A stretch of DNA of 10,617 nucleotides, from contig JAAUSP010000233.1 in the NCBI GenBank assembly GCA_012032575.1, positions 1-10,617 on the forward strand, written 5' to 3'. Position numbers and translations under genes: made by a program. The DNA comes from Anaerolineales bacterium. GTDB lineage: Bacteria; Chloroflexota; Anaerolineae; 4572-78; J111. Under the pieces are notes generated by a model. It was not told the origin of the DNA. It saw nothing but the letters and a program-made list of their open reading frames with translations, and searched no databases. This document shows positions 1,621 through 10,617 of the stretch, piece by piece; the first letter of the stretch is position 1; every line of letters starts with the position of its first letter.

Positions 1621-1665
1621 GGACTATAGTCCATATCAGCCGAGCGGATTATAGTGACTATAGTC
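1621..1665. promoter_or_regulatory. Paired palindromic operators over the cytochrome promoter
   Basis: GGACTATAGTCC at 1621-1632 is a perfect 12-bp palindrome, and GACTATAGTC at 1656-1665 is a perfect 10-bp palindrome with the same core. Centres are 34 bp apart, a little over three helical turns. The second copy sits between the -35 and -10 boxes; the first sits just downstream of the predicted transcription start. This is the geometry of a repressor operator pair. A small dimeric winged-helix repressor (for example BlaI/CopY-like) would fit, but no candidate regulator is encoded beside it, so the protein is unknown. Confidence 0.65.
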
Positions 1666-1675
1666 TGTTTGTCAA
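1648..1675 (-). promoter_or_regulatory. Sigma-70-type promoter of the cytochrome operon
   Basis: Read on the minus strand, TTGACA (1675-1670) and TATAAT (1653-1648) are separated by 16 bp. Both hexamers match consensus exactly. The predicted start is near 1641, leaving a leader of about 150 nt before the cytochrome ATG. The spacer is filled by a 10-bp palindrome, described separately. The assignment rests on sequence match alone, but an exact double match upstream of a correctly oriented gene is unlikely by chance. Confidence 0.75.
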
Positions 1676-1822: not shown

Positions 1823-2548
1823 TTATTTGAGATTACCGGCCAGGACTTTTTCGCCGGTCGGCTCGGAACTGCCGCCGGTCGGCTCGACGCTGACATCACA
1901 GCCGGAATATTCAAAGAGGTTTTGGGGCGCTCTGATCCGCCCTCCGCCATAACCGTATTCGTCAACCGAGAAAACAGCGCCACTGGTGCGGTATTCATTT
2001 TGCAGCAGCCATAATTGATACTGATAATTGGGTTCGAGCGTGGGCAAGGCATCCACCACAAACGCGCCGTTTTCTCCATCCGCGCCGATGAGTACGAAAC
2101 CGGCTGCTCCGGGGGCCAGCCCGATGAGCGGAATGGCCCGCATCCCACCCGAATGAGCTCCAGATTCAAGCCGAGTGAGGCGCTGCCAGAGCAAGAAATT
2201 GCTGGCGATTAATACCAGGATCAAGAGTAAGGAGGCGACTCCCCAGGCCAGTACCACCCGCTGGCTGAAATTGGGCCAGTGCTGCCACCAGGGGGCCGGA
2301 GCCTGGCTGAGGGGAGATGAGGGCTGCTTTTGTACTCGCGCCAGCAAACGGCGCTTTAAGCCGGTCGAGGGCAGGGCATCAGGTGCAGCCAGGGCCAGGT
2401 CAGCCGCTACGGCCTCATAAACGGCCAGTTCTGCCTTACAAACGGGGCAGTTTCCCAGGTGCTCAGACACCGCTATTTGCTCAGCCGGGTCTAAACTCCC
2501 CAGGGCATAAGCTGGCAGTAATTCAAAAAAATGGTCGTCAGCAGTCAT
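1823..2548 (-). CDS. Anti-sigma-K factor (RskA-like) with zinc-binding N-terminus
   Basis: This 241-residue single-pass membrane protein should hold an ECF sigma factor inactive until an envelope signal releases it. The N-terminal cytoplasmic domain carries the zinc anti-sigma motif H30-x3-C34-x2-C37 (HLGNCPVC). One membrane helix spans about 98-121. The extracytoplasmic part (about 145-239) matches the RskA C-terminal domain, including GFVLIGADG, LPTLEPNYQYQLWLL, and the closing SVEPTGGSSEPTGEKVLAG. The length is normal and the ends are intact. The gene lies 70 bp downstream of the ECF sigma gene on the same strand, the usual order for such a pair. The target genes are unknown. The cytochrome operon next door looks sigma-70 driven, so it is not an obvious target. 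Confidence 0.88.
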   Translation of the reverse strand: MTADDHFFELLPAYALGSLDPAEQIAVSEHLGNCPVCKAELAVYEAVAADLALAAPDALPSTGLKRRLLARVQKQPSSPLSQAPAPWWQHWPNFSQRVVLAWGVASLLLILVLIASNFLLWQRLTRLESGAHSGGMRAIPLIGLAPGAAGFVLIGADGENGAFVVDALPTLEPNYQYQLWLLQNEYRTSGAVFSVDEYGYGGGRIRAPQNLFEYSGCDVSVEPTGGSSEPTGEKVLAGNLK

Positions 2549-2618
2549 GGCCTAATACCCGAATCAACAACTCTGTAGATTCATACGCAAATCGAAATGT
2601 TTTGGATTTAGACAAACA

Positions 2619-3191
2619 TTATTCATCGTGCAGCATCTGGCGGAGTTTCTGCATGGCTGAGCGGAGCCGGGTTTTAACGGTCCCCAGCGGCTCTTGCAAT
2701 ATCTCGGCAATCTGGCGATGGGTGTAGCCCTTGAAATAGGCCAACGCCAGCGACTGCTTCTGTTCGGCCGGGAGTTGGGCGATGGCGGCCCGAATAAGCT
2801 CTTGCCGCAGGGTAAGTTCCACTGTTTCTTCCGGGCCGTTGCTAAATCCGGCAGTTTCCGGGACATCGGCCCAGCTTACCAGGTTTTGTTCCACCCGGGT
2901 CCGGCGCTGGCGCAACACGTCAATGGCCCGATGGCGGGCCAGACTCAACAGCCAGGTCGTCACCTTGGACTGCTCGGTTCGATAGGTCTCGGCCTTTTCC
3001 CAAACCCGGGTAAAAACGTCCAGCGTGATTTCTTCGGCGGCAGCGTGATCGGCCACCGAGTTCAAAGCCAGGCTAAAAACCAGACGGTGATAGCGTTGGT
3101 ACAATTCGCCCAGCGCGTCCGGTTGGGCGCAGGTGATATGCGTCATGAGTTCGGCGTCGTCCAGCTTTGAATAATCAACGGTGGATTTCAT
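2619..3191 (-). CDS. ECF-type RNA polymerase sigma-70 factor
   Basis: This 190-residue alternative sigma factor has region 2 at about 27-98. Its recognisable parts are ELYQRYHRLVFSLAL, the core-binding helix EEITLDVFTRVWEKAETYR, and the -10 recognition part TTWLLSLARHRAIDVLRQRR. A short linker follows, then region 4 at about 131-185 with the helix-turn-helix YTHRQIAEILQEPLGTVKTRL. There is no region 1 or 3, as expected for the ECF class. The partner RskA-like anti-sigma gene is next in the transcript, and SigK/RskA pairs are the closest named parallel. The ATG at 3191 gives the right N-terminus but has only a weak ribosome binding site. I cannot see an ECF-style autoregulatory promoter in the short gap upstream. 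Confidence 0.92.
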   Translation of the reverse strand: MKSTVDYSKLDDAELMTHITCAQPDALGELYQRYHRLVFSLALNSVADHAAAEEITLDVFTRVWEKAETYRTEQSKVTTWLLSLARHRAIDVLRQRRTRVEQNLVSWADVPETAGFSNGPEETVELTLRQELIRAAIAQLPAEQKQSLALAYFKGYTHRQIAEILQEPLGTVKTRLRSAMQKLRQMLHDE

Positions 3192-3289: not shown

Positions 3290-5992
3290 TTACCCCAACT
3301 CCTTTAGCCGTTCCCAGATCTTGGCAGCCTGAAGTTCCAGGTCGGCCAGTTGTTCACGCTCTTTTTCTACCACGGCGGCCGGGGCTTTTTGGGTGAAATT
3401 GGGATTACTGAGTTTAACTCTACCTGCGGCAATTCGCTTTTCGAGTTGAGCCACTTCCTTATGCCAGCGGGCCTGTTCTGCCTCCAAATCAATCATCCCC
3501 GCCAGCGGTAAATAAATTTCAATGCCGCCGCTAATCACCTCGGCTATGGCTTGAGCCGGCTTTTGGTCCAGCGTGGCCGCCACCTGGAAATCATCTTTCT
3601 CCAGGCGAGCCAACGCGATCACAATCTCCTGGTGTTTGATGATCAACTCGTAGTTAGCTCCGGCAGCAATTGTGGCAGCAATCTTTTTGCCCGGTTCGAC
3701 ATTGTATTCGGAGCGGATATTGCGGATGGCCCGGATCATTTCGATCAGAAGGTCCATCTGCGCTTCGGCTTCTTCGTCAATCCCCGTATGGCTTTGGTGC
3801 GGCCAGGAAGTCACCATCAGGCTGTCGCCCTCGTGGGGGAGGTGCTGCCAGGCGGCTTCGGTGACAAAAGGGATAAAGGGATGGAGCAGCCGCAGGACGT
3901 GTTCCAGCACGTAGACCAGCACCCGCCGGGCGGTCGCCTGGGCGCGGGCATCGGTCCCGTAGAGCCGGATTTTGGCAATCTCGATGTACCAATCGGCAAA
4001 CTCGCCCCAGAAGAATTCGTAGATCTGACGGCCGGCCTCGCCAAAGTTGAACTCGTTCATCAAACGGGTCACATCGGTGACGAGGCGGTTGTGGCGGCTC
4101 AAAATCCAGCGATCCGGCAGAGACAGCCCCGACAAATTCCACGTTCCCGCCCCCGATTGAAAGGCCGTGCCGGTGTTGTTGACCACAAAGCGGGTGGCGT
4201 TCCAGATTTTGTTGCAGAAGTTGCGGTTGGCGGCGATGCGCTCCATAGACAGGTTCATATCGTTGCCGGGCGCGGAGCCGGTCAGCAGGGTGAAGCGCAG
4301 GGCGTCGGTGCCGTACTCGTCCATCACCTCCAGCGGGTCAACTACATTGCCGGATGTTTTGCTCATCTTGCGGCCATGCTCGTCGCGAATGAGGCCGTGC
4401 AAATAGACAGTATTGAACGGAGCCTGCTCGGTGTATTCCAACCCGCTCATGATCATGCGGGCCACCCAGAAAAAGAGAATATCGTAGCCGGTTTCCATGA
4501 CTGAGGTGGGATAGTAACGGCGCAGGTCGGGCGTGTCTTCGGGCCAGCCCAGGGTGGAGAAAGGCCACAAACCGGAGCTAAACCAGGTGTCCAACACGTC
4601 AGCGTCCTGCTCGATTTTTTGGCTGTGGCAGTGGGTACACTCGGACGGGTCCTGCCGGGCCACGGTCATGCCGCCGCAGTCGGCGCAGTACCAGACCGGG
4701 ATGCGATGGCCCCACCAGAGCTGGCGGCTGATGCACCAATCCCGGATATTATCCAGCCAGTTGTTGTAAATTTTGGTAAAGCGCTCCGGGATGATCTTGA
4801 TATCGCCGTTGGCCACTGCCGCCAGGCCCTTATCGGCCAGCGGCTTCATTTTGACAAACCACTGGGTCGAAACCAGCGGCTCGACCACCTCGCCGCCCCG
4901 CTGCGAGCGCGGCACTTGCAGCCGGTGCGGTTTGACTTCCAGGGTCAGCCCGGCCGCTTCCATATCGGCCCACAGTTTGCGGCGACAGTCAAAGCGGTCC
5001 AACCCCTGATACGGGCCGGCGTTCTGGTTCATCGTGGCGTCTTTGTTCATCACATTGATGATGGGCAGGTTGTGTTTCCGGCCAATTTCAAAGTCGTTGG
5101 GATCGTGGCCGGGGGTAATTTTGAGCGCCCCGGTGCCAAACTCGCGGTCCACGTAGGGGTCGGCAATCACCGGAATCTGGCGGCCCAGCATGGGCACGAG
5201 CGCCATGCGGCCCACAAACCGCTGGTAGCGCTCATCGTCCGGGTGGACGGCCACGGCGGTATCGCCCAAAATGGTTTCGGGACGGGTGGTCGCCACAGCG
5301 ATATACTCCTCCTCCCCCTCCGAGGGGGAGGTCGGGAGGGGGTCAGCCAGCCTATATTTGAAGTAGTACAGCCGCCCTTCTTCTTCGCTGTACTCCACCT
5401 CCAGATCGCTGACGGCGGTTTGCAGACCCGGCGACCAGTTGATCAGGTATTCGCCCCGATAGATCAGGCCGCGCTCGTACAGAGTCACAAACGCTTCGCG
5501 CACCGCCCGCGAGAGGCCCTCATCCATCGTAAATCTTTCCCGGTCCCAGTCACACGATGCACCCAAACGGCGGTGCTGCTGCTGGATAGTGCCGCTGTAC
5601 TGCTCTTTCCAGGCCCAGGTCCGTTCCAGAAATTTCTCGCGGCCAATTTCCTCGCGGCTGGTGCCTTCGTTGCGCAGGGCGCGTTCCACCTGCAACTGGG
5701 TGGCGATGCCGGCGTGATCGGTGCCGGGAACCCACAACGCCGCCTTGCCGTGCATGCGCTGGTAGCGGATCAGCAAATCCTCAATCGAGGCGGTGATGGC
5801 GTGGCCCAGGTGCAGCGCGCCGGTCACATTGGGCGGCGGCATCGAGATAACAAACGGCTCGGCTTTGGGGCCGGCGATCTCCGGTTTAAAATAACCCTTG
5901 CTTTCCCACCAGTCATAGATGGGCTGTTCAAACAATTTGGGTTCGTAGGCTTTGGCCATATCATTGGGGTCAATGGGTAGTTGTTTTGGCAT
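3290..5992 (-). CDS. valS: Valine--tRNA ligase
   Basis: This 900-residue class I aminoacyl-tRNA synthetase charges tRNA-Val with valine in the cytoplasm. The HIGH motif is HLGH at 61-64, after PPPNVTGAL. The CP1 editing domain includes VATTRPET (233-240), and DHAGIATQ follows HIGH. A zinc-knuckle-like CxxC/CxxC region lies near the WGHRIPVWYC segment. The KMSKS loop reads KMSKT at about 543, and a C-terminal coiled coil ends the protein. The PRSQRGGEVVEPLVSTQWF segment is the usual bacterial form. The ATG at 5992 has AGGAG 8 nt upstream. One oddity is an extra D-P-L-P-T-S-P-S-E-G-rich stretch at about 217-228 in the editing domain. The gene starts only 92 bp from the end of a recombinase gene, so its native upstream region may have been displaced. 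Confidence 0.98.
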   Translation of the reverse strand: MPKQLPIDPNDMAKAYEPKLFEQPIYDWWESKGYFKPEIAGPKAEPFVISMPPPNVTGALHLGHAITASIEDLLIRYQRMHGKAALWVPGTDHAGIATQLQVERALRNEGTSREEIGREKFLERTWAWKEQYSGTIQQQHRRLGASCDWDRERFTMDEGLSRAVREAFVTLYERGLIYRGEYLINWSPGLQTAVSDLEVEYSEEEGRLYYFKYRLADPLPTSPSEGEEEYIAVATTRPETILGDTAVAVHPDDERYQRFVGRMALVPMLGRQIPVIADPYVDREFGTGALKITPGHDPNDFEIGRKHNLPIINVMNKDATMNQNAGPYQGLDRFDCRRKLWADMEAAGLTLEVKPHRLQVPRSQRGGEVVEPLVSTQWFVKMKPLADKGLAAVANGDIKIIPERFTKIYNNWLDNIRDWCISRQLWWGHRIPVWYCADCGGMTVARQDPSECTHCHSQKIEQDADVLDTWFSSGLWPFSTLGWPEDTPDLRRYYPTSVMETGYDILFFWVARMIMSGLEYTEQAPFNTVYLHGLIRDEHGRKMSKTSGNVVDPLEVMDEYGTDALRFTLLTGSAPGNDMNLSMERIAANRNFCNKIWNATRFVVNNTGTAFQSGAGTWNLSGLSLPDRWILSRHNRLVTDVTRLMNEFNFGEAGRQIYEFFWGEFADWYIEIAKIRLYGTDARAQATARRVLVYVLEHVLRLLHPFIPFVTEAAWQHLPHEGDSLMVTSWPHQSHTGIDEEAEAQMDLLIEMIRAIRNIRSEYNVEPGKKIAATIAAGANYELIIKHQEIVIALARLEKDDFQVAATLDQKPAQAIAEVISGGIEIYLPLAGMIDLEAEQARWHKEVAQLEKRIAAGRVKLSNPNFTQKAPAAVVEKEREQLADLELQAAKIWERLKELG
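5311..5331. repeat. GC-rich palindromic repeat inside valS
   Basis: Nine-base arms CCTCCCCCT and AGGGGGAGG surround CCG. The palindrome is flanked by further C/G-rich sequence (to about 5343). It is read in frame as the Pro/Ser/Glu-rich insert of the ValS editing domain, between LYYFKYRLAD and EEYIAVATTRPET, which are normally nearly adjacent. Such CTCCCCCTC-type palindromes are common as dispersed intergenic elements in Chloroflexota and cyanobacteria. Here one seems to have entered a coding region without breaking the frame. Confidence 0.6.
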
Positions 5993-6010
5993 GTTTATTG
6001 CTCCTGAGCT

Positions 6011-6047
6011 GACCGGGGACCGGAAAAATAGACCCCGGTCTCCGGTC
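6011..6047. other. 13-bp inverted repeat in the valS leader
   Basis: GACCGGGGACCGG (6011-6023) can pair with CCGGTCTCCGGTC (6035-6047), with one G-T wobble, across 11 bases. It sits just upstream of the valS ribosome binding site. CGGTCT also recurs a third time nearby (6055-6060), suggesting a small repeat family. It could be an attenuator, a terminator for the recombinase transcript or a dispersed repeat. No U-tract follows on the minus strand; on the plus strand only TTT follows. Confidence 0.4.
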
Positions 6048-6071
6048 TTTCGTCCTCGGTCTTAAATCAAA

Positions 6072-6106
6072 ATCCCTTCCATCCTCAAGGATGAATATCA
6101 AGGGAT
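6072..6106. other. Nested inverted repeats around the recombinase stop codon
   Basis: An outer pair ATCCCTT/AAGGGAT (6072-6078 and 6100-6106) encloses an inner pair CATCC/GGATG (6080-6084 and 6089-6093). The stop codon of the recombinase (6085-6087) lies in the inner loop. Read on the minus strand the structure is followed by AAGACC rather than a U-run, so a standard terminator is not evident. It marks the host-proximal end of the recombinase gene and could be part of an attachment region, but I have no second copy to confirm that. Confidence 0.35.
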
Positions 6107-7539
6107 AGGGTATTTATAACTTTGGTTAGGTGATACTCGACTAATGTTCCCTGCCATTGCCGGCCTTGTGTCCGTTCTGTTTTTACCTTTACGCTGTTAG
6201 GTTCAAACACAAAGGAGAGTAACCGCCTAAAGGCTATCGGCTTCGTTTCGGCCATTTTGCCAAGTCTATCGGCTATGTTTTGCCCTTTTAACACTTCTAT
6301 GGCCGTTTGCCATTCTGCCATTATCACGGCTTTTTCGGCAATGCTGGACAGTTCAACCGTCAAACGTTGCTCCTGTTCTCTCAGTTCAGCCAGCTTTGCG
6401 GCGGCCTCTTGGTTAGTGAGTATACCCAGGCTGATCGCTTCGACTAACCGTTCCTTCCCGGCCTGAACGCTGGCTAACTCGCCTTGTATAGCGGCTTCTA
6501 TAGCTTCCTCAGTTATGCTTTTGCCATATTGGGCGGCGGTGCTGTAAAGGCTGTCAGGAAAATCAATCTGGCCTTGAATAAAATCGGTCAAAAATTCTAT
6601 AATGGGCGGTAAAATTAAATGCTCGCTTATAGTTTGTCCGGTTGAGCAAACATCTACCCCAAACTTGCGCCGATTCATACATTGATAAATAACTGGCCCA
6701 TTTCCGCTTTTGCCTGCTACCATTACACTGCCACAATTGCTACAGGCAACAAAACCGGTGAAGATATAGCGGCCCCTACGCCCCAGCCCTTTTCTATTCC
6801 CGGCGCGGCTCTTAATCAATTCTTTTATTCGCTCAAATTGGTCTAGGCTGATAATTTGCAAGTCAGGGCGGTGGGTTACTTTGTCGGTTACTTTGCTCTC
6901 AAAGATACCAATATACAATTTGTTCTTTATTATTTGGTGGATGGTATTTTGAGTAAATAACTTGCCCTTTTTGCCTCTATACCCGGCCTTATTCAATCGT
7001 TTGGCCGTTTCGGTCATATTTCCCCCTGTTGCTTCCAGGGTTGAAAAAATCAATTCTACTAATTTAACCTCATTCGGGTTTTTAGCAAAATCAGCCGTTT
7101 CTCTTTGTCCTATAATGATATAACCTAGCCCCGCTTGCCCCCCTACAAATTTACCGCTTTTAGCTCGTGCCTCTATTCCCCTTCTCATGCGCTTAAGTGT
7201 CCGCCGGCGTTCCTTCTTGGCTACAGACATAGTTATATCAGCCAAAAAGTCGTCATCATCATTATTCAGATCAACCCGGGCTGTATGGGTGTAAATGATG
7301 ACGCCATACTCCATTATGACGTTTCTAATCGTGGTATAGACTACCGCTTCCTCTGGCCGGGCCAGCCGGTCCAAGTCTTGAACAATGATAACTTGAATCT
7401 CCCCTGCGGCTATCCGGTCCAAAATTTTCATCATTTCCGGCCTGCCGGTTAGGGTAGTGCCTGAGCCAATTTCTTTGATATATTCCCAGGTAAAATTATT
7501 CTGCTCTGCTACCCTGATTCCAACTTCACGGGCGTTCAC
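6085..7539 (-). CDS. Large serine recombinase (integrase), catalytic N-terminus out of frame
   Basis: This frame of 484 codons opens at a GTG and covers most of a large serine recombinase, the DNA strand-exchange enzyme of phages and integrative elements. Visible parts are the resolvase-fold remainder (IGSGTTL and the LDRLAR motif at 56-61), the Recombinase domain (about 130-245, e.g. GLGYIII, NKAGYRGKKGKLFTQNTI), a zinc ribbon with C266, C269, C287 and C298, and a coiled coil at about 340-405. The catalytic serine is absent from this frame. It lies directly upstream in a second frame, described separately, so the natural start is near 7601 and the full enzyme would be about 505 residues. The gene ends 92 bp before valS and is more AT-rich than the host genes. 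As drawn it should be inactive. Confidence 0.85.
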   Translation of the reverse strand: MNAREVGIRVAEQNNFTWEYIKEIGSGTTLTGRPEMMKILDRIAAGEIQVIIVQDLDRLARPEEAVVYTTIRNVIMEYGVIIYTHTARVDLNNDDDDFLADITMSVAKKERRRTLKRMRRGIEARAKSGKFVGGQAGLGYIIIGQRETADFAKNPNEVKLVELIFSTLEATGGNMTETAKRLNKAGYRGKKGKLFTQNTIHQIIKNKLYIGIFESKVTDKVTHRPDLQIISLDQFERIKELIKSRAGNRKGLGRRGRYIFTGFVACSNCGSVMVAGKSGNGPVIYQCMNRRKFGVDVCSTGQTISEHLILPPIIEFLTDFIQGQIDFPDSLYSTAAQYGKSITEEAIEAAIQGELASVQAGKERLVEAISLGILTNQEAAAKLAELREQEQRLTVELSSIAEKAVIMAEWQTAIEVLKGQNIADRLGKMAETKPIAFRRLLSFVFEPNSVKVKTERTQGRQWQGTLVEYHLTKVINTLSLDIHP

Positions 7540-7601
7540 TCGGCATAGTTGTCTTTTTGTAGCTTTGTGCTGGCTCTGTCGTAAATTGCTGCGTGTGTCA
7601 T
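7536..7601 (-). pseudogene. Detached N-terminal segment of the serine recombinase with catalytic Ser
   Basis: ATG at 7601 opens 21 codons, MTHAAIYDRASTKLQKDNYA plus E, ending at TGA (7538-7536). AIYDRAST-x2-Q is the catalytic strand of serine recombinases (Y-x-R-x-S-T-x-x-Q), with Ser11 the nucleophile. The main frame resumes as VNAREVGIRVAEQ at the same spot. Joining the two at the E/V boundary gives a gap-free resolvase helix of normal length, so one missing base (for example a G in GAG-GTG) explains the break. The cause may be a real mutation, an assembly or basecalling error, or -1 recoding. Only a single-site AAA slip is possible upstream, not a full slippery heptamer. Confidence 0.8.
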
Positions 7602-7639
7602 TGCCCTAATTGTCACTTTCTACCCGTTCTATCAACTTC

Positions 7640-7676
7640 TGCCACTTCATGCCACTTTTGCCACTTATTGCCACTT
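7640..7676. repeat. Four iteron-like direct repeats upstream of the recombinase
   Basis: TGCCACTT (AAGTGGCA in the mRNA direction) occurs at 7640, 7650, 7659 and 7669, spaced 10, 9 and 10 bp, so all copies face the same side of the helix. They lie in the 78-bp gap between the last small ORF of the operon and the recombinase start. Arrays like this bind a cooperative regulator or a replication/recombination protein. They could control the recombinase, serve as accessory recombination sites, or be an origin. Confidence 0.65.
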
Positions 7677-7679
7677 CTC

Positions 7680-7988
7680 CTAGCTAGTTGACGTGGTAGA
7701 AGTTTTGGCATACTCCTCAGAGTAGGGGGCTATCCCCAGGTGTTCATAACAGTAACGCAAGCCCCCGGCCAGCCGGCCTGATGTCCCTTGCCCTCGCCCG
7801 GTGACAATGTGATGCTGCTCACCTAATGTCACAAAAGCCAAATATTCTTCAACCCACAAACGGCGGTCAACGGTCCGATAATGCAGTGAGCATAGGTAAC
7901 GTTGGCTGAGGGGGTGGGGGTGTACTTGACGACAGGGCCATACCCCCTCTTGCGCTCGCCAGGCTTTCAATACAATTTCTTCTACCAA
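7680..7988 (-). CDS. Small protein of unknown function
   Basis: I do not recognise this protein of about 102 residues. It is rich in Tyr, Trp, His and Cys (e.g. VWPCRQVHPHP, RYLCSLHYRTVDRRLWVEEY) and has a Gly-rich stretch, TGRGQGTSGRLAGGLRYCYEHLG. No membrane helix or signal peptide is seen. There is no ATG. The TTG at 7988 is one possible start; the frame stays open upstream to 8039 and includes TIIYCPFISG, so a non-ATG start overlapping the previous ORF is also possible. It is the last gene of the operon before the iterons. Composition and the long open frame suggest it is real, but start and function are unknown. Confidence 0.45.
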   Translation of the reverse strand: MVEEIVLKAWRAQEGVWPCRQVHPHPLSQRYLCSLHYRTVDRRLWVEEYLAFVTLGEQHHIVTGRGQGTSGRLAGGLRYCYEHLGIAPYSEEYAKTSTTSTS

Positions 7989-8017
7989 TCCTGATATAAA
8001 CGGACAGTAAATAATAG

Positions 8018-8254
8018 TCAGGCGATTAGAGCGGGCGGGTTATCTACATATCCCCAATATTTCATAGGCGCGGGCTTTTCCTTCCACTTAATTACCTTCG
8101 TGGGTTGCATATCAGGATCGTTTCTTAGGGAAGGGTCAAAAGCAAGCCGGGCCGTATGAAAGAAAGCAGTTACGCCGTTGACGCTGCGTTCTACTTGCTG
8201 CCTACCGCCTGAAACAATACGCTGGCGGGCGATGGCGTTTCTGAAAGCGTCCAC
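8018..8254 (-). CDS. Small hypothetical protein
   Basis: This 78-residue ORF has a basic N-terminal half (DAFRNAIARQRIVSGGRQQVERSV) and a C-terminal part with KVIKWKEKPAPMKYWGYVDNPP. No known family is recognised and no membrane helix is seen. It starts at GTG (8254) with AGGT a few bases upstream and overlaps the previous gene by 64 bp, which is long for an operon overlap and lowers confidence. It lies in the same direction as its neighbours and fills space that would otherwise be empty. The true start may be further in, although no good internal one is visible before Met49. Confidence 0.4.
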   Translation of the reverse strand: MDAFRNAIARQRIVSGGRQQVERSVNGVTAFFHTARLAFDPSLRNDPDMQPTKVIKWKEKPAPMKYWGYVDNPPALIA

Positions 8255-8463
8255 ATTTTACCTAGTGAGCGAGCGGCCAGGGCAATAGCAGGTAGGGCCG
8301 ACAGGCTACCGGTTAGAGTAATAACGATGTATGGTTCCGGCCAATCACCAGTTGCGGCGCTGTAAGCAATAATAAGCGAGCCTGTAGCGGCCCCGGTCAT
8401 CAAGGTATAATTCATATATTCTTTGAGTAAAGTGCCGGTGGGGGTAGCTTTAATGGAGGTCAT
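8191..8463 (-). CDS. Small two-helix membrane protein of the mobile element
   Basis: This protein has 90 residues with hydrophobic segments at about 21-37 (MTGAATGSLIIAYSAAT) and 45-66 (YIVITLTGSLSALPAIALAA), and a hydrophilic C-terminus ending AVGSK. The ATG at 8463 overlaps the TGA of the upstream DUF2637-like gene (ATGA), and GGGAGG lies 7 nt before it inside that gene. An ATG five codons earlier is within the Shine-Dalgarno and was not chosen. Translational coupling suggests it works with the DUF2637-like membrane protein, perhaps in one membrane assembly. I recognise no family. Confidence 0.65.
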   Translation of the reverse strand: MTSIKATPTGTLLKEYMNYTLMTGAATGSLIIAYSAATGDWPEPYIVITLTGSLSALPAIALAARSLGKMWTLSETPSPASVLFQAVGSK

Positions 8464-9296
8464 GCTGTTACCTCCCATCCGTTGCCATTTTGATGTAGTT
8501 TGCCAGACTTGGTTAATTCATTGACATAATTGCTTGCTGTTTGCCGGCTTGTGCCAAGCTCTTGGGCGGCCTCTCTCAAACTGGCATAGGGGTTGCTTGA
8601 TAGGTAACGTAACAGGATGTTAAGGCGCTCTTGACGCTTGGCTTGCCGGGCATCATTCAGGGTGTCAATTTTCGGGGAAAATTGCTGGAAATTTAACGCC
8701 GCGTTTTGTATGTCGGCTTTCAAAGTTTCAATTTGGGTGGTCAACTCACCACGCTTTAGTGAGAGGGTGTCAACCTCTTGCGCCAAGTTGTTTAGTTCCC
8801 CTTGCTTGGTTGACACAAGGGCGTCAAGCTCGGCTTGCTTGTCGGCTATCATCTTGTCAAGCTCTTGGCGCTTGACCTCAAGTTCGATTGTCAGATTGGT
8901 AATAGATTTAACAACGGCTGATAACTTAACCGCGTGTTTAATCTGACCCAGGAATGTCTCAAAACTTAAGAGCAGAAATAGACTCGGCATTGCCGACATT
9001 GACTGGCTGATTAAATCAGATTCAGCGTGTAGCACATTGAACAGGCCAGCCAGCAAAGATGAGCCAATAATTAGCCCCCATTGCCACTTAGCCGACTCGC
9101 CATGTATGGAGCGGTATAAAGCATTAAGTGAGAAGATGATAACCCCGGCCTCGACTACCAACGGAAACAAGGGCGGAATCGAAACGCTGTGCTTGGCGGC
9201 CAGATCGGTTAAGGCGTTAAAACTAAGAATGAAGGAAAACAGAGCCATTAGAAGGGTTAAAGAGCCAGTTACCCAGGCTATAGTTTTGGTGTTCAT
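8460..9296 (-). CDS. DUF2637-like membrane protein with coiled coil and C-terminal winged helix
   Basis: The protein has 278 residues. Four membrane helices (about 5-26, 42-60, 72-90, 100-117) match the DUF2637 pattern, notably SFNALTDLAAKHSVSIPPLFPLVVEAG read in two parts: SFNALTDLA and PPLFPLVVEAG. A coiled coil follows at about 130-208 with heptad Lys/Glu/Leu repeats. A winged helix-turn-helix ends the protein at about 224-275 (SLREAAQELGTSRQTASNYVNEL). DUF2637 proteins, some with similar HTH tails, are typical of actinobacterial conjugative and phage-like elements. A membrane protein that also binds DNA could tether the element or the transfer apparatus to the membrane; that is inference. 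Start and stop both overlap neighbours by ATGA, so it is tightly coupled in the operon. Confidence 0.8.
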   Translation of the reverse strand: MNTKTIAWVTGSLTLLMALFSFILSFNALTDLAAKHSVSIPPLFPLVVEAGVIIFSLNALYRSIHGESAKWQWGLIIGSSLLAGLFNVLHAESDLISQSMSAMPSLFLLLSFETFLGQIKHAVKLSAVVKSITNLTIELEVKRQELDKMIADKQAELDALVSTKQGELNNLAQEVDTLSLKRGELTTQIETLKADIQNAALNFQQFSPKIDTLNDARQAKRQERLNILLRYLSSNPYASLREAAQELGTSRQTASNYVNELTKSGKLHQNGNGWEVTA

Positions 9297-9478
9297 AGCC
9301 GGGTCTCGATTCTGGCTTTATCGGCCTCGTATTGCCTTTGCCAATAATTCAGCGATTGCCAGGCATAATTAAGCTGCTGCTGCCAATGTTCTTGCCAACG
9401 TGGGGTAGACTTGGCGAGTCGGTTCTCTACCCAATGAAGATAAAACTTAGCATCCTTTACACGTGGAGAAAAAGACAA
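9293..9478 (-). CDS. Small Trp/Gln-rich helical protein
   Basis: This 61-residue protein is basic and aromatic, with many Trp and Gln (FYLHWVENRL, RWQEHWQQQLNYAWQSLNYW), and probably forms one long helix or short coiled coil. It has no known family and no membrane segment. It has no ATG: it starts at TTG (9478) directly after the TGA of the 47-aa ORF (TGATTG), and its own TGA overlaps the ATG of the DUF2637-like gene. Start and stop placement inside a packed operon is the main support. It may be a partner of the membrane protein. Confidence 0.5.
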   Translation of the reverse strand: MSFSPRVKDAKFYLHWVENRLAKSTPRWQEHWQQQLNYAWQSLNYWQRQYEADKARIETRL

Positions 9479-9622
9479 TCAGGACAAAGGCAAGCTCTTA
9501 GGTGTTTTGGGTTGACCTTTTGGGAAAATTGCGCCGAATCGGGCACGGTTTGCCCATTGCAGGCTTGGGGATTCTGTGTTAAATTCTGTGAAGACATTGC
9601 AGTAAGTTTCCTTTACTGTCAT
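9479..9622 (-). CDS. 47-residue ORF, second gene of the operon
   Basis: The ATG at 9622 (MTVKETYCNVFTEF) leads to 47 codons containing SLQWANRARFGAIFPKG and a Pro/Lys/Ser-rich tail ending LPLS. No family is recognised. The TGA abuts the TTG start of the next gene. No Shine-Dalgarno is visible at the start, which lies within the arm of a candidate antisense RNA. Placement 46 bp after the ribbon-helix-helix gene and exact abutment to the next gene support it as coding. Confidence 0.45.
   Translation of the reverse strand: MTVKETYCNVFTEFNTESPSLQWANRARFGAIFPKGQPKTPKSLPLS
9557..9584 (+). promoter_or_regulatory. Candidate plus-strand promoter of an antisense RNA
   Basis: TTGCAG (9557-9562) and TTAAAT (9579-9584) are 16 bp apart. 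Each matches four or five of six consensus positions. The predicted start near 9591 would give a transcript of about 80 nt ending at the plus-strand terminator at 9627-9670. This is weak by itself; it is listed because the terminator needs a source. Confidence 0.3.
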
Positions 9623-9670
9623 GTTAGAGGCGCGTTGCCGGTTGCGACGGCGGCGCGTCTCGTTTTGTTT
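9591..9670 (+). ncRNA. Candidate antisense RNA against the operon's RHH/47-aa junction
   Basis: The predicted RNA of about 80 nt has a small hairpin (CAGTAA/TTACTG, 9600-9605 and 9613-9618) followed by a strong terminator hairpin. It is fully complementary to the start region of the 47-aa ORF and to the end of the ribbon-helix-helix gene on the other strand. In pMV158-type plasmids a ribbon-helix-helix repressor gene (copG) is followed by an antisense RNA (RNA II) that blocks translation of the next gene. The layout here is the same, but the target is a mobile-element operon of unknown role. The boundaries are predictions. Confidence 0.35.
9627..9670 (+). terminator. Intrinsic terminator on the plus strand, antisense to the operon
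   Basis: Fourteen-base arms (9627-9640 and 9648-9661) with a 7-base loop pair completely in plus-strand RNA, including three G-U pairs, and are followed by GTTTTGTTT. On the minus strand the three wobble positions become A-C mismatches and the flank is A-rich, so it works, if at all, on a plus-strand transcript. All genes here are on the minus strand, so it most likely ends an antisense RNA. It lies between the ribbon-helix-helix stop and the next start. Confidence 0.65.
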
Positions 9671-9842
9671 AGTGGGGTTGCTCGACTGGTTTTTGTGCTT
9701 GAGCCTTGCGGCGCTGCGCTTCCTGTTTGAGAATTTGACGCATCACCCAGGATATTGACCGATCATCCTGTTTGGCCCATCTTTCGAGCAAGGTCTTTTG
9801 CTCGGTAGTGCCGACAAAAGAGATTGTGATAGATTCTGACAT
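9669..9842 (-). CDS. Ribbon-helix-helix (CopG/Arc-type) DNA-binding protein
   Basis: The protein has 57 residues: MSESITISFVGTTEQ begins with a beta strand, followed by two helices (QKTLLERWAKQDD and SISWVMRQILKQEAQRR), the usual ribbon-helix-helix order, with a basic Gln/Lys-rich tail. Such proteins are dimeric repressors. The ATG at 9842 has AGGAG 9 nt upstream, so the start is secure. It is the first gene after a strong promoter whose -35 box overlaps an inverted repeat, a probable self-operator. It begins the operon that runs to the small ORF at 7680 and lies divergent to the XRE regulator. Autoregulation and control of the element are inferred. Confidence 0.8.
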   Translation of the reverse strand: MSESITISFVGTTEQKTLLERWAKQDDRSISWVMRQILKQEAQRRKAQAQKPVEQPH

Positions 9843-9894: not shown

Positions 9895-9923
9895 AGTATA
9901 AATTAAAAGATATTGATTGTCAA
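9895..9923 (-). promoter_or_regulatory. Sigma-70-type promoter of the mobile-element operon
   Basis: Read on the minus strand, TTGACA (9923-9918) and TATACT (9900-9895) are 17 bp apart: a perfect -35 and a five-of-six -10 at ideal spacing. The predicted start lies about 46 bp upstream of the ribbon-helix-helix ATG. The region is strongly AT-rich compared with the host genes. Confidence 0.75.
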
Positions 9924-9966: not shown

Positions 9967-10302
9967 ATGAGCGATTTAGGAACTTGGGCATCTGAGGCAA
10001 CAAAAAAGCGCGGATGGTCTTATAGGGAATTGGCGAGACGGGCCGGAATCTCCCATAGTCTCATATCAAAGGTCTTTTCAGATGATATGCCCCCAAGTGC
10101 CGACTTTTGTATAAAAATCGCCTCCGCCCTCAGTGAATCCCCTGAAAAAGTTTTGCGACTGGCCGGGATTCTGCCATCGTCTCCGGCCTCAGATAATGAC
10201 ACTTTGCAAGAATTGATAGAGCTTGCCCGCAATCTCCCCCCGGAAGATCAAAAAGAACTTTTGGACTATGCCCGCTTTCGTTACCAGAAACGGAAGGGTT
10301 AG
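9967..10302 (+). CDS. XRE-family helix-turn-helix regulator
   Basis: The protein has 111 residues. The N-terminal Cro/CI-type HTH is at about 6-65, with the recognition part SYRELARRAGISHSLISKVF at 18-37 and a conserved later segment (ADFCIKIASALSESPEKVLRLAGILP). A helical tail follows (ELARNLPPEDQKELLDYARFRYQKRK), common in stand-alone XRE repressors. It is transcribed away from the ribbon-helix-helix operon across a 124-bp shared control region, the classic layout of a switch in phages and integrative elements. A weak GGG lies upstream; a possible -10 (TAAAAT, 9955-9960) ends 6 bp before the ATG, so the message may be nearly leaderless. The operator partner is not proven. Confidence 0.85.
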   Translation: MSDLGTWASEATKKRGWSYRELARRAGISHSLISKVFSDDMPPSADFCIKIASALSESPEKVLRLAGILPSSPASDNDTLQELIELARNLPPEDQKELLDYARFRYQKRKG

Positions 10303-10406
10303 CCCCAGGTGCGGTCTTGCTCTGTAATTTTGAGATTATCAAACAAGGCTTGTAACCGTTTCACAAACTCTCCACGTAACGCGGCCAATATTGCGGCACT
10401 GGCCTG
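10299..10406 (-). other. Short protein-like reading frame, possible gene remnant
   Basis: A minus-strand frame of 35 codons ends in TAA at 10301-10299, which overlaps the XRE stop. It has protein-like composition (AAILAALRGEFVKRLQALF, then DNLKITEQDRTWG) but no ATG; an internal TTG at 10388 is the only obvious start, and TAA and TGA stops lie just upstream. Neighbouring frames there also stay open in a protein-like way (e.g. PAKPPRLKANLTGQ), so it may be the C-terminal end of a decayed gene. I cannot name a family. Confidence 0.25.
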
Positions 10407-10598
10407 TTAGATTCGCTTTCAGCCGAGGCGGTTTGGCAGGGTTTTGTGGTTATGTGTTTTGTGTAGAGTACCACGAAACTTACTTCTGTAGTTCTGTTAG
10501 CATTACCCTTGACTGCACCTTAAAAAGCGCATAACTGAAATTGCACGAGGGCGAATTGTGAGTAAACTCTCCCTATTCCATAGATGAGGGTCAGAGCC
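10303..10598. other. Mostly non-coding stretch at the right edge
   Basis: Apart from the short minus-strand frame above, I see no gene. It contains a GGCCA/TGGCC inverted repeat (about 10383-10404). TTGACT at about 10509 is followed by a poor -10 candidate (near GCATAACTG), possibly the promoter of the gene that starts at 10599. No tRNA, CRISPR or attachment-site copy was recognised. Confidence 0.4.
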
Positions 10599-10617
10599 AT
10601 GGAAAATATTATCCCCG
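10599..10617 (+). CDS. Possible start of a gene cut by the window edge
   Basis: ATG at 10599 opens MENIIP and runs off the edge. GAGGG lies about 10 nt upstream, which is an acceptable ribosome binding site. Only six codons are visible, so product and reality cannot be judged. The strand matches the XRE gene, not the operon. Confidence 0.35.

What the first reader, a model, noticed from the sequence alone, without database searches (positions are those of the whole stretch)
9557..9670. Antisense RNA module between a ribbon-helix-helix repressor gene and its operon, like pMV158 copG/RNA II
A plus-strand terminator (14-bp stem, U-rich tail) sits antisense to the minus-strand operon. Three of its base pairs are G-U in plus RNA but A-C mismatches in minus RNA, so the structure is fitted to an antisense transcript. 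A candidate promoter lies upstream (TTGCAG-16-TTAAAT). The predicted RNA covers the start of the 47-aa ORF, directly after a CopG/Arc-like gene. In pMV158-family plasmids the same order controls rep; here the controlled genes are a DUF2637 membrane/HTH operon. This would be dual transcriptional and antisense control of a chromosomal integrative element, which I do not know to be described.
Basis: partly seen in the sequence, partly recalled or inferred. Interest (0 to 1): 0.72.

Follow-up and report, generated by a model that had tools for sequence, protein, structure and literature searches.

The report
Antisense RNA cassette in mobile elements
A mobile DNA element, probably from a Chloroflexota bacterium, carries what looks like a small two-hairpin RNA gene read backwards across the start of one of its operons, and related elements and prophages carry the same cassette, which probably works as a brake on making the operon's proteins.

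Summary
The hairpin is real, and relatives support the antisense reading. A plus-strand RNA of about 79 nt (9592 to about 9670) is predicted: promoter TTGCAG (9557-9562), 17 bp, TAAATT (9580-9585); SL1, whose loop UUUCC complements a Shine-Dalgarno (SD) sequence; SL2, the 14-bp terminator. The covered start codon is 9597 (46-aa ORF), not the 47-aa ORF. I list 20 instances (window, 18 genome loci, one viral contig). In 20 of 20 the antisense strand folds better than the sense strand and a promoter-like -10 lies over sense codons 5-7 (selection was partly by these features). In the first 13, antisense folds hold 69 G-U pairs, sense folds 4. Stems covary: 13 of 25 pairs on a structure-blind alignment, 19 of 25 on a model-fitted one, 0 of 500 shuffles reaching either. 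Two of nine relatives with the ribbon-helix-helix gene lack the cassette. It resembles pMV158 copG/RNAII/repB and P22 arc/sar/ant in layout, FinP/RepX in RNA shape, but is no FinP/FinO member (no Rfam match; no ProQ/FinO domain in 7 genomes). Most likely it blocks translation initiation of the operon's first ORF. Transcription and function are inferred, not shown.

The parts
9557..9585 (+). Predicted antisense promoter: -35 TTGCAG (9557-9562), 17 bp, -10 TAAATT (9580-9585) preceded by TGT
   Evidence: Same arrangement at the same distance from the sense start codon in 20 of 20 listed instances
9592..9670 (+). Predicted antisense RNA, about 79 nt (5' end placed 7 nt after the -10; 3' end in the U-tract)
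   Evidence: Two-hairpin fold -39.7 kcal/mol, sense strand -24.8; covariation
9593..9625 (+). SL1; loop UUUCC at 9607-9611 complements the SD of the minus-strand leader ORF
9627..9661 (+). SL2, 14-bp terminator stem with three G-U pairs; U-rich tail 9662-9670
9609..9614 (-). Candidate SD (AAAGGA) of the leader ORF
   Evidence: Read from the sequence; SD-like pattern before the start in 19 of 20 instances
9457..9597 (-). 46-aa leader ORF MSSQNLTQNP..., likely target of the antisense RNA
   Evidence: First 16 residues 81% identical to the L016 leader
9669..9842 (-). 57-aa RHH-type protein (CopG/Arc-like)
   Evidence: Pfam RHH_1 E 0.017, below the curated cut-off; 13 of 25 relatives match RHH_1 at E <= 0.1; predicted fold resembles RHH proteins, Foldseek E >= 0.16
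9895..9923 (-). Candidate operon promoter TTGACA-17-TATACT upstream of the RHH gene
   Evidence: Consensus scan, 11 of 12
9293..9478 (-). 61-aa ORF between leader and DUF2637 gene, unknown
   Evidence: ORF list only; no Pfam match over cut-off
8460..9296 (-). DUF2637 membrane protein with C-terminal winged helix
   Evidence: PF10935 E 3.5e-15, PF13412 E 4.6e-7
6085..7601 (-). Large serine recombinase, split between two frames (6112-7545 and 7542-7601)

Best explanation
The region encodes a cis-antisense RNA of about 79 nt. It starts opposite codons 2-3 of the operon's leader ORF, crosses the start codon and SD, folds into SL1 (anti-SD loop) and SL2 (terminator), and ends at the stop codon of the RHH gene. 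SL1 contacts the complementary mRNA hairpin that presents the SD in its loop, pairing spreads over the start codon, and the leader ORF, with any gene translationally coupled to it, is translated less. The RHH protein represses transcription of the same operon, so the element has two brakes on its DUF2637/integrase operon. Shown by comparison: a conserved antisense promoter sequence, two covarying hairpins fitted to the antisense strand, and placement over SD and start codon. Inferred: transcription, loop-loop contact, translation block, operator binding by the RHH protein, coupling to later genes.
For: Antisense fold better in 13 of 13 (mean difference about -13 kcal/mol) with 69 against 4 G-U pairs; 94 other SD-bearing starts differ by +0.3 on average, sd 5.6. 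Covariation: 13 of 25 pairs with two-sided change on a structure-blind MAFFT alignment of 7, 0 of 500 shuffles; 19 of 25 on 13 model-fitted sequences. Promoter over sense codons 5-7 in 20 of 20, against 2 of 306 other ORF starts. An RNA-only model found two new loci, L050 and L074, whose promoter and start codon, not part of the model, are in place.
Against: No transcript data. 2 of 9 RHH loci lack the cassette. Asymmetry is weak in L021 (-28.5 against -25.9), and L017 and L021 have no A-C mismatch in SL2. L022 and L035 have a poor U-tract. Control starts include 5 of 94 with a difference of -9 or stronger and 12 of 94 with an antisense fold of -28 or stronger. The first 13 instances were picked by eye and later ones by structure, promoter or leader, so the counts are not independent; the sequences share descent. 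L050 has no standard SD pattern.
Confidence: 0.8

Rival explanations
1. The antisense RNA exists but acts mainly through attenuation of operon transcription or through RNase III cleavage of the duplex, as described for pT181/pIP501-type control, rather than by blocking ribosomes.
For: Attenuation by antisense RNA is a known alternative for plasmid control (passages); full complementarity makes duplex cleavage plausible. In L002 and L003 the sense hairpin is followed by a short run of T.
Against: In the window the sense hairpin is followed by TAACATGACAG, not a T run, and the conserved placement is over SD and start codon.
Confidence: 0.1
2. The hairpins belong to the sense mRNA: a leader structure that hides the start codon, or a protein binding site, without antisense RNA.
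For: The minus strand also folds better than shuffles (z -3.00 and -3.66), and SL1 presents the SD in a loop.
Against: 69 against 4 G-U pairs and better antisense fold in 13 of 13; an antisense promoter at fixed place over codons 5-7.
Confidence: 0.05
3. The plus-strand terminator only stops stray or convergent transcription from the operon side and has no target.
For: Intrinsic terminators are common; the window's number of terminator-like sites is ordinary.
Against: Conservation of promoter, SL1 with anti-SD loop and SL2 as a unit; covariation in SL1, which is not needed for termination.
Confidence: 0.03
4. The palindrome is a DNA site (recombination, origin or transfer site) and not an RNA structure.
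For: It lies in an integrated mobile element and is strongly palindromic.
Against: A DNA site gives no reason for G-U over A-C on one strand or for a promoter at fixed distance.
Confidence: 0.02

Closest known systems
pMV158 copG - RNAII - repB (PMC4485353, passages)
   Same: Small RHH repressor gene, then an antisense RNA gene in the intergenic region, then the controlled gene; RNAII inhibits translation and ends in an intrinsic terminator.
   Different: RNAII is 48 nt with one hairpin and a 17-nt unpaired 5' tail and pairs just upstream of the repB initiation signals; here 67-98 nt, two hairpins, and SD and start codon are covered. Target is not a plasmid initiator in the window.
Phage P22 immunity I: mnt/arc - sar RNA - ant (PMC2629481 and PMC13397905, passages; layout of sar between arc and ant recalled)
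   Same: RHH repressor (Arc) plus an antisense RNA that stops translation of the next gene, in a mobile element.
   Different: Target is the antirepressor; no relative of Ant was seen or searched for here. No Rfam match.
FinP (F-like plasmids) and RepX (IncQ) antisense RNAs (PMC8136791, passages)
   Same: About 74-79 nt (FinP length recalled, RepX 74 nt), two stem-loops, covering the ribosome binding site or start of the target; FinP controls conjugation.
   Different: They bind the FinO protein; no ProQ/FinO domain found in 7 genomes carrying the cassette. No Rfam match.
Anti-Q of pCF10 (PMC6540685, passages)
   Same: Antisense RNA controlling a conjugation operon.
   Different: Acts by inducing termination of the sense transcript.
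sgm-sRNA of SGI1 (PMC9299015, passages)
   Same: Small RNA encoded by an integrated mobile island.
   Different: Required for mobilization and apparently not a classical antisense regulator.

Membership tests
pMV158-type copG/rnaII/rep control | Antisense gene overlapping the intergenic region after an RHH repressor gene, opposite to the operon | tested here: met
   (RHH assignment weak by sequence)
pMV158-type copG/rnaII/rep control | 48-nt RNA with a single hairpin and unpaired 5' tail | tested here: not met
   Two hairpins, 67-98 nt in 13 instances
pMV158-type copG/rnaII/rep control | Target gene encodes the replication initiator | tested here: not met
   Window leader, 61-aa ORF and DUF2637 protein have no initiator match in Pfam
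pMV158-type copG/rnaII/rep control | RHH protein binds its own promoter | not testable with these tools
   Needs a binding experiment
FinP/FinO system | Antisense RNA of two stem-loops over SD and start codon of the target | tested here: met
FinP/FinO system | FinO/ProQ-domain RNA chaperone | tested here: not met
   PF04352: 0 of 7 genomes; control rings in E. coli. The window's own genome is not held
FinP/FinO system and other antisense families of Rfam | Match to an Rfam family at the gathering score | tested here: not met
   0 matches in the window and in 12 loci
P22 arc/sar/ant | RHH repressor gene followed by antisense RNA over the start of the next gene | tested here: met
   layout of P22 partly recalled
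P22 arc/sar/ant | Target is an antirepressor (Ant) | not tested
   No search for Ant relatives was made; leader and DUF2637 proteins match no such Pfam family
Any of these antisense control systems | RNA is made and lowers synthesis of the target | not testable with these tools
   Needs RNA and reporter work
RHH (CopG/Arc) proteins | Ribbon-helix-helix fold | tested here: inconclusive
   AlphaFold model (pLDDT 82) shows two helices, no assigned strand in the monomer; Foldseek best matches are RHH proteins, CopG 2cpg among them, but all E >= 0.16; Pfam below cut-off

The most novel reading that the evidence does not exclude
This is a portable antisense-control cassette of Chloroflexota mobile DNA. 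One unit of promoter, SL1, SL2 and SD has been fitted in front of unrelated operons: DUF2637/ATPase/integrase, an operon with a primase-like gene (L095), one with a ParA-like gene (L092), and phage-like genes (L050, L074, viral contig L097). Because its promoter lies inside the target's first codons, it imposes a recurring N-terminal peptide (M, three residues, N or I, L or V) on otherwise unrelated proteins. One genome (G319) carries at least six copies whose SL1 loops differ, so the cassettes may also act as incompatibility markers between co-resident elements.
Probability: 0.45. Interest if true: 0.74.

Novelty: new variant of a known kind. Interest (0 to 1): 0.62.

Why it matters
Paired control by a small RHH repressor and an antisense RNA was established on small plasmids and in phage P22. 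Here the same logic appears with a different, two-hairpin RNA in a family of integrated elements and phage-like regions of Anaerolineae, where my ten full-text searches (open-licence papers only) found no such RNA described. It offers a small, concrete and testable regulator of how these elements express their transfer and integration genes, and an example of a promoter dictating the N-terminal residues of unrelated proteins.

Tried and rejected
RHH protein in plasmid and phage records: no match. Viral contigs with the RHH and DUF2637 alignments: candidates but none confirmed. Rfam: nothing at gathering scores. FinO/ProQ: 0 of 7 genomes. ATPase against plasmids: 7 records, none covering 80% of the query. 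L074 leader in phage records: no match. End repeats between 5901-6200 and 10281-10617: nothing longer than 8 bp. First-reader spacer of 16 bp with TTAAAT: replaced by 17 bp with TAAATT. The four family-level searches with the wider RHH alignment found no RHH locus beyond those.

Rows not counted as instances: L087 (both hairpins, no TTG at -35), L094 (6-aa GTG leader), L045 (hairpins without the promoter). Read and not accepted: R1 matches L051-L057 (L053 is doubtful: hairpins but no start codon at the expected place), R2 matches L083-L085 and L096. Not inspected: 14 weaker R1 matches (L058-L069, L071, L072). Four weak RHH matches (frames of 248-321 aa) and three ATPase matches (one of G224, two of G291) were not followed.

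Full report
What is there. The plus strand of 9627-9661 forms a 14-pair stem with a U-rich tail and folds better than shuffles (z -4.82); the minus strand does so too, less strongly (z -3.00). Just upstream lies a second stem-loop, SL1 (9593-9625), whose loop UUUCC complements the AAAGGA before a minus-strand ORF starting at 9597. The stretch follows a 57-aa RHH-type gene (9669-9842) and precedes a 61-aa ORF, a DUF2637/winged-helix gene and a serine recombinase. A divergent HTH_3 regulator lies at 9967-10302. No whole genome is held for the window. The three named records with DUF2637 relatives are Anaerolineales, Anaerolineae and Chloroflexi assemblies, so I infer a Chloroflexota host.

Relatives. 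The RHH protein has 25 homologues at E <= 0.001 in the protein database. Among 396 genomes of the class of G001, 12 RHH matches were found in 8 genomes; 8 are strong, in 4 genomes (G001, G146, G193, G319), and 4 weak ones were dropped. With the window that makes 9 loci; 7 of them (window, L016, L017, L018, L020, L021, L022) have a hairpin, SD and ATG in this arrangement. In L016 an 86-aa ORF lies between the RHH gene and the cassette. L001 and L019 lack it: DUF2637 follows the RHH gene directly. A search with the P-loop ATPase that follows DUF2637 in relatives gave 26 matches in 14 of 396 genomes; 9 were places already in hand, 14 further regions were fetched and 3 were not. Of those 14, four (L034, L035, L036, L038) show the cassette and L045 the hairpins only; several of the others are short or distant. 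L002 and L003 show it too, with a different small protein before it, RHH-like by eye and not matched by the RHH alignment.

Tests on these 13. (1) Strand: the predicted RNA (67-98 nt) folds better than its complement in 13 of 13, by about 13 kcal/mol on average (weakest L021, 2.6), with 69 G-U pairs against 4. For 94 other SD-bearing starts in the same loci the difference averages +0.3 (sd 5.6); 45 of 94 lean to the antisense side, 5 of 94 by 9 or more, and 12 of 94 have an antisense fold of -28 or stronger. (2) Covariation: on a plain MAFFT alignment of seven RNAs, 91.7% of cells pair and 13 of 25 pairs have two-sided changes; none of 500 shuffles reaches any of the five measures. (3) Promoter: 13 of 13 have TTGnnn-17/18-TAnnnT with the -10 over sense nt 13-18, or 16-21 in L003 and L036. 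Of 312 ORF starts of at least 80 aa in these loci, 8 have such a pattern, and 6 of the 8 are cassette leaders, so 2 of 306 others. The codons under the -10 are ANT NTA in 13 of 13 although the residues vary (N or I, then L or V) and NTA codons are a minority for Leu (0.19) and Val (0.15); the joint figure of 10^-14.3 ignores common descent and is only a gauge. Instances had been picked by eye, so blind support was sought.

Blind support. A covariance model of the RNA part alone (R1) over the 396 genomes gave 29 matches at E <= 1 in 24 genomes. The best eight are six loci used for training and two new ones, L050 and L074; in both the promoter, which is not in the model, and an ATG stand at the expected places. 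The next seven were read and not accepted; 14 were not inspected. A model with promoter (R2) over the 12 genomes of the family of G319 gave 17 matches at E <= 0.1: seven training loci; L021, L002 and L036, not used in training; L092, L081 and L093, new and accepted; L087, not counted; three failures. Over 400 genomes of the phylum it gave 4 matches at E <= 0.01: one known, L095 accepted, L094 not counted, L096 failed; the wide searches used stricter filters. A leader relative on an IMG/VR contig, L097, has the cassette as well. Final tally of the 20 listed: promoter 20 of 20, SD-like pattern 19 of 20 (not L050), antisense fold better 20 of 20. On 13 sequences fitted to R1, 19 of 25 pairs have two-sided changes, 0 of 500 shuffles; that alignment leans to the structure. 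Since these loci were found or accepted by structure, promoter or leader, the later counts are partly circular.

Target and context. Leaders share little beyond the first residues: 79 aa in L017, 169 aa in L016, the DUF2637 protein itself in L002, a 16-aa peptide whose stop overlaps the next start (ATGA) in L050. Downstream genes include DUF2637 and a P-loop ATPase with weak profile matches to EccC and FtsK, a Toprim/primase-like protein (L095), a ParA-like protein (L092, by eye) and phage-like genes (L075, L076, by eye). Before the cassette of L074 there is a TTGACA-17-TACAAT promoter and a divergent gene; no RHH gene was seen there. In the window no match to three ATPases of relatives was found and the recombinase is split between two frames, so this copy is a decayed element or the contig carries an error.

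Mechanism. The RNA would cover SD and start codon, its SL1 loop complements the SD, which the mRNA also presents in a loop, and the window's sense hairpin has no T run after it. A translation block is the best reading, with duplex cleavage a likely follow-up. With the RHH protein this would give transcriptional plus antisense control, as in pMV158 and P22. The RNA shape is that of FinP and RepX, without a FinO/ProQ domain in 7 genomes or an Rfam match.

Literature. Ten full-text searches of open-licence papers listed no description of an antisense RNA in Chloroflexota mobile elements. Most subscription journals are not held, so this is weak evidence. Nine papers were seen, as passages only.

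Noticed in passing
window 6085-7601 (-): The serine recombinase's N-terminal stretch (7542-7601) lies in another frame than the rest (6112-7545): a frame break in this copy, or a contig error.
   Followed up: partly
window 7540-8250: The P-loop ATPase gene found between DUF2637 and the recombinase in relatives gave no tblastn match in the window (three relatives tried).
   Followed up: partly
window 9967-10302 (+): Divergent HTH_3 (Cro/C1-type) regulator; relatives have it at the same place.
   Followed up: no
window 1648-1675 (-): A perfect consensus promoter, TTGACA-16-TATAAT.
   Followed up: no
window 1823-3191 (-): Neighbouring ORFs that look by eye like an ECF-type sigma factor and its zinc-finger anti-sigma factor.
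   Followed up: no
L017, L018, L020, L074, L092, L093 (genome G319): One genome holds six cassettes whose SL1 loops differ by eye, while L017 and L020 share the SL2 loop GUUUCAG.
   Followed up: partly
L016 2071-4538; L018 1-4804: The recombinase genes abut or overlap the ends of a ComM/Mg-chelatase-like gene (L016) and an SMC-like gene (L018), recognised by eye, suggesting insertion next to or into housekeeping genes.
   Followed up: no
L042 650-920: A stretch rich in nested palindromes folds at about -112 to -116 kcal/mol on either strand.
   Followed up: no
L040 3918-3939 and L041 4040-4061: The same antisense terminator-like hairpin (GGCCGGTGCTGATACACCGGCC plus T run) lies before the ATPase-like gene in two more distant elements; no antisense promoter was looked for.
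   Followed up: no
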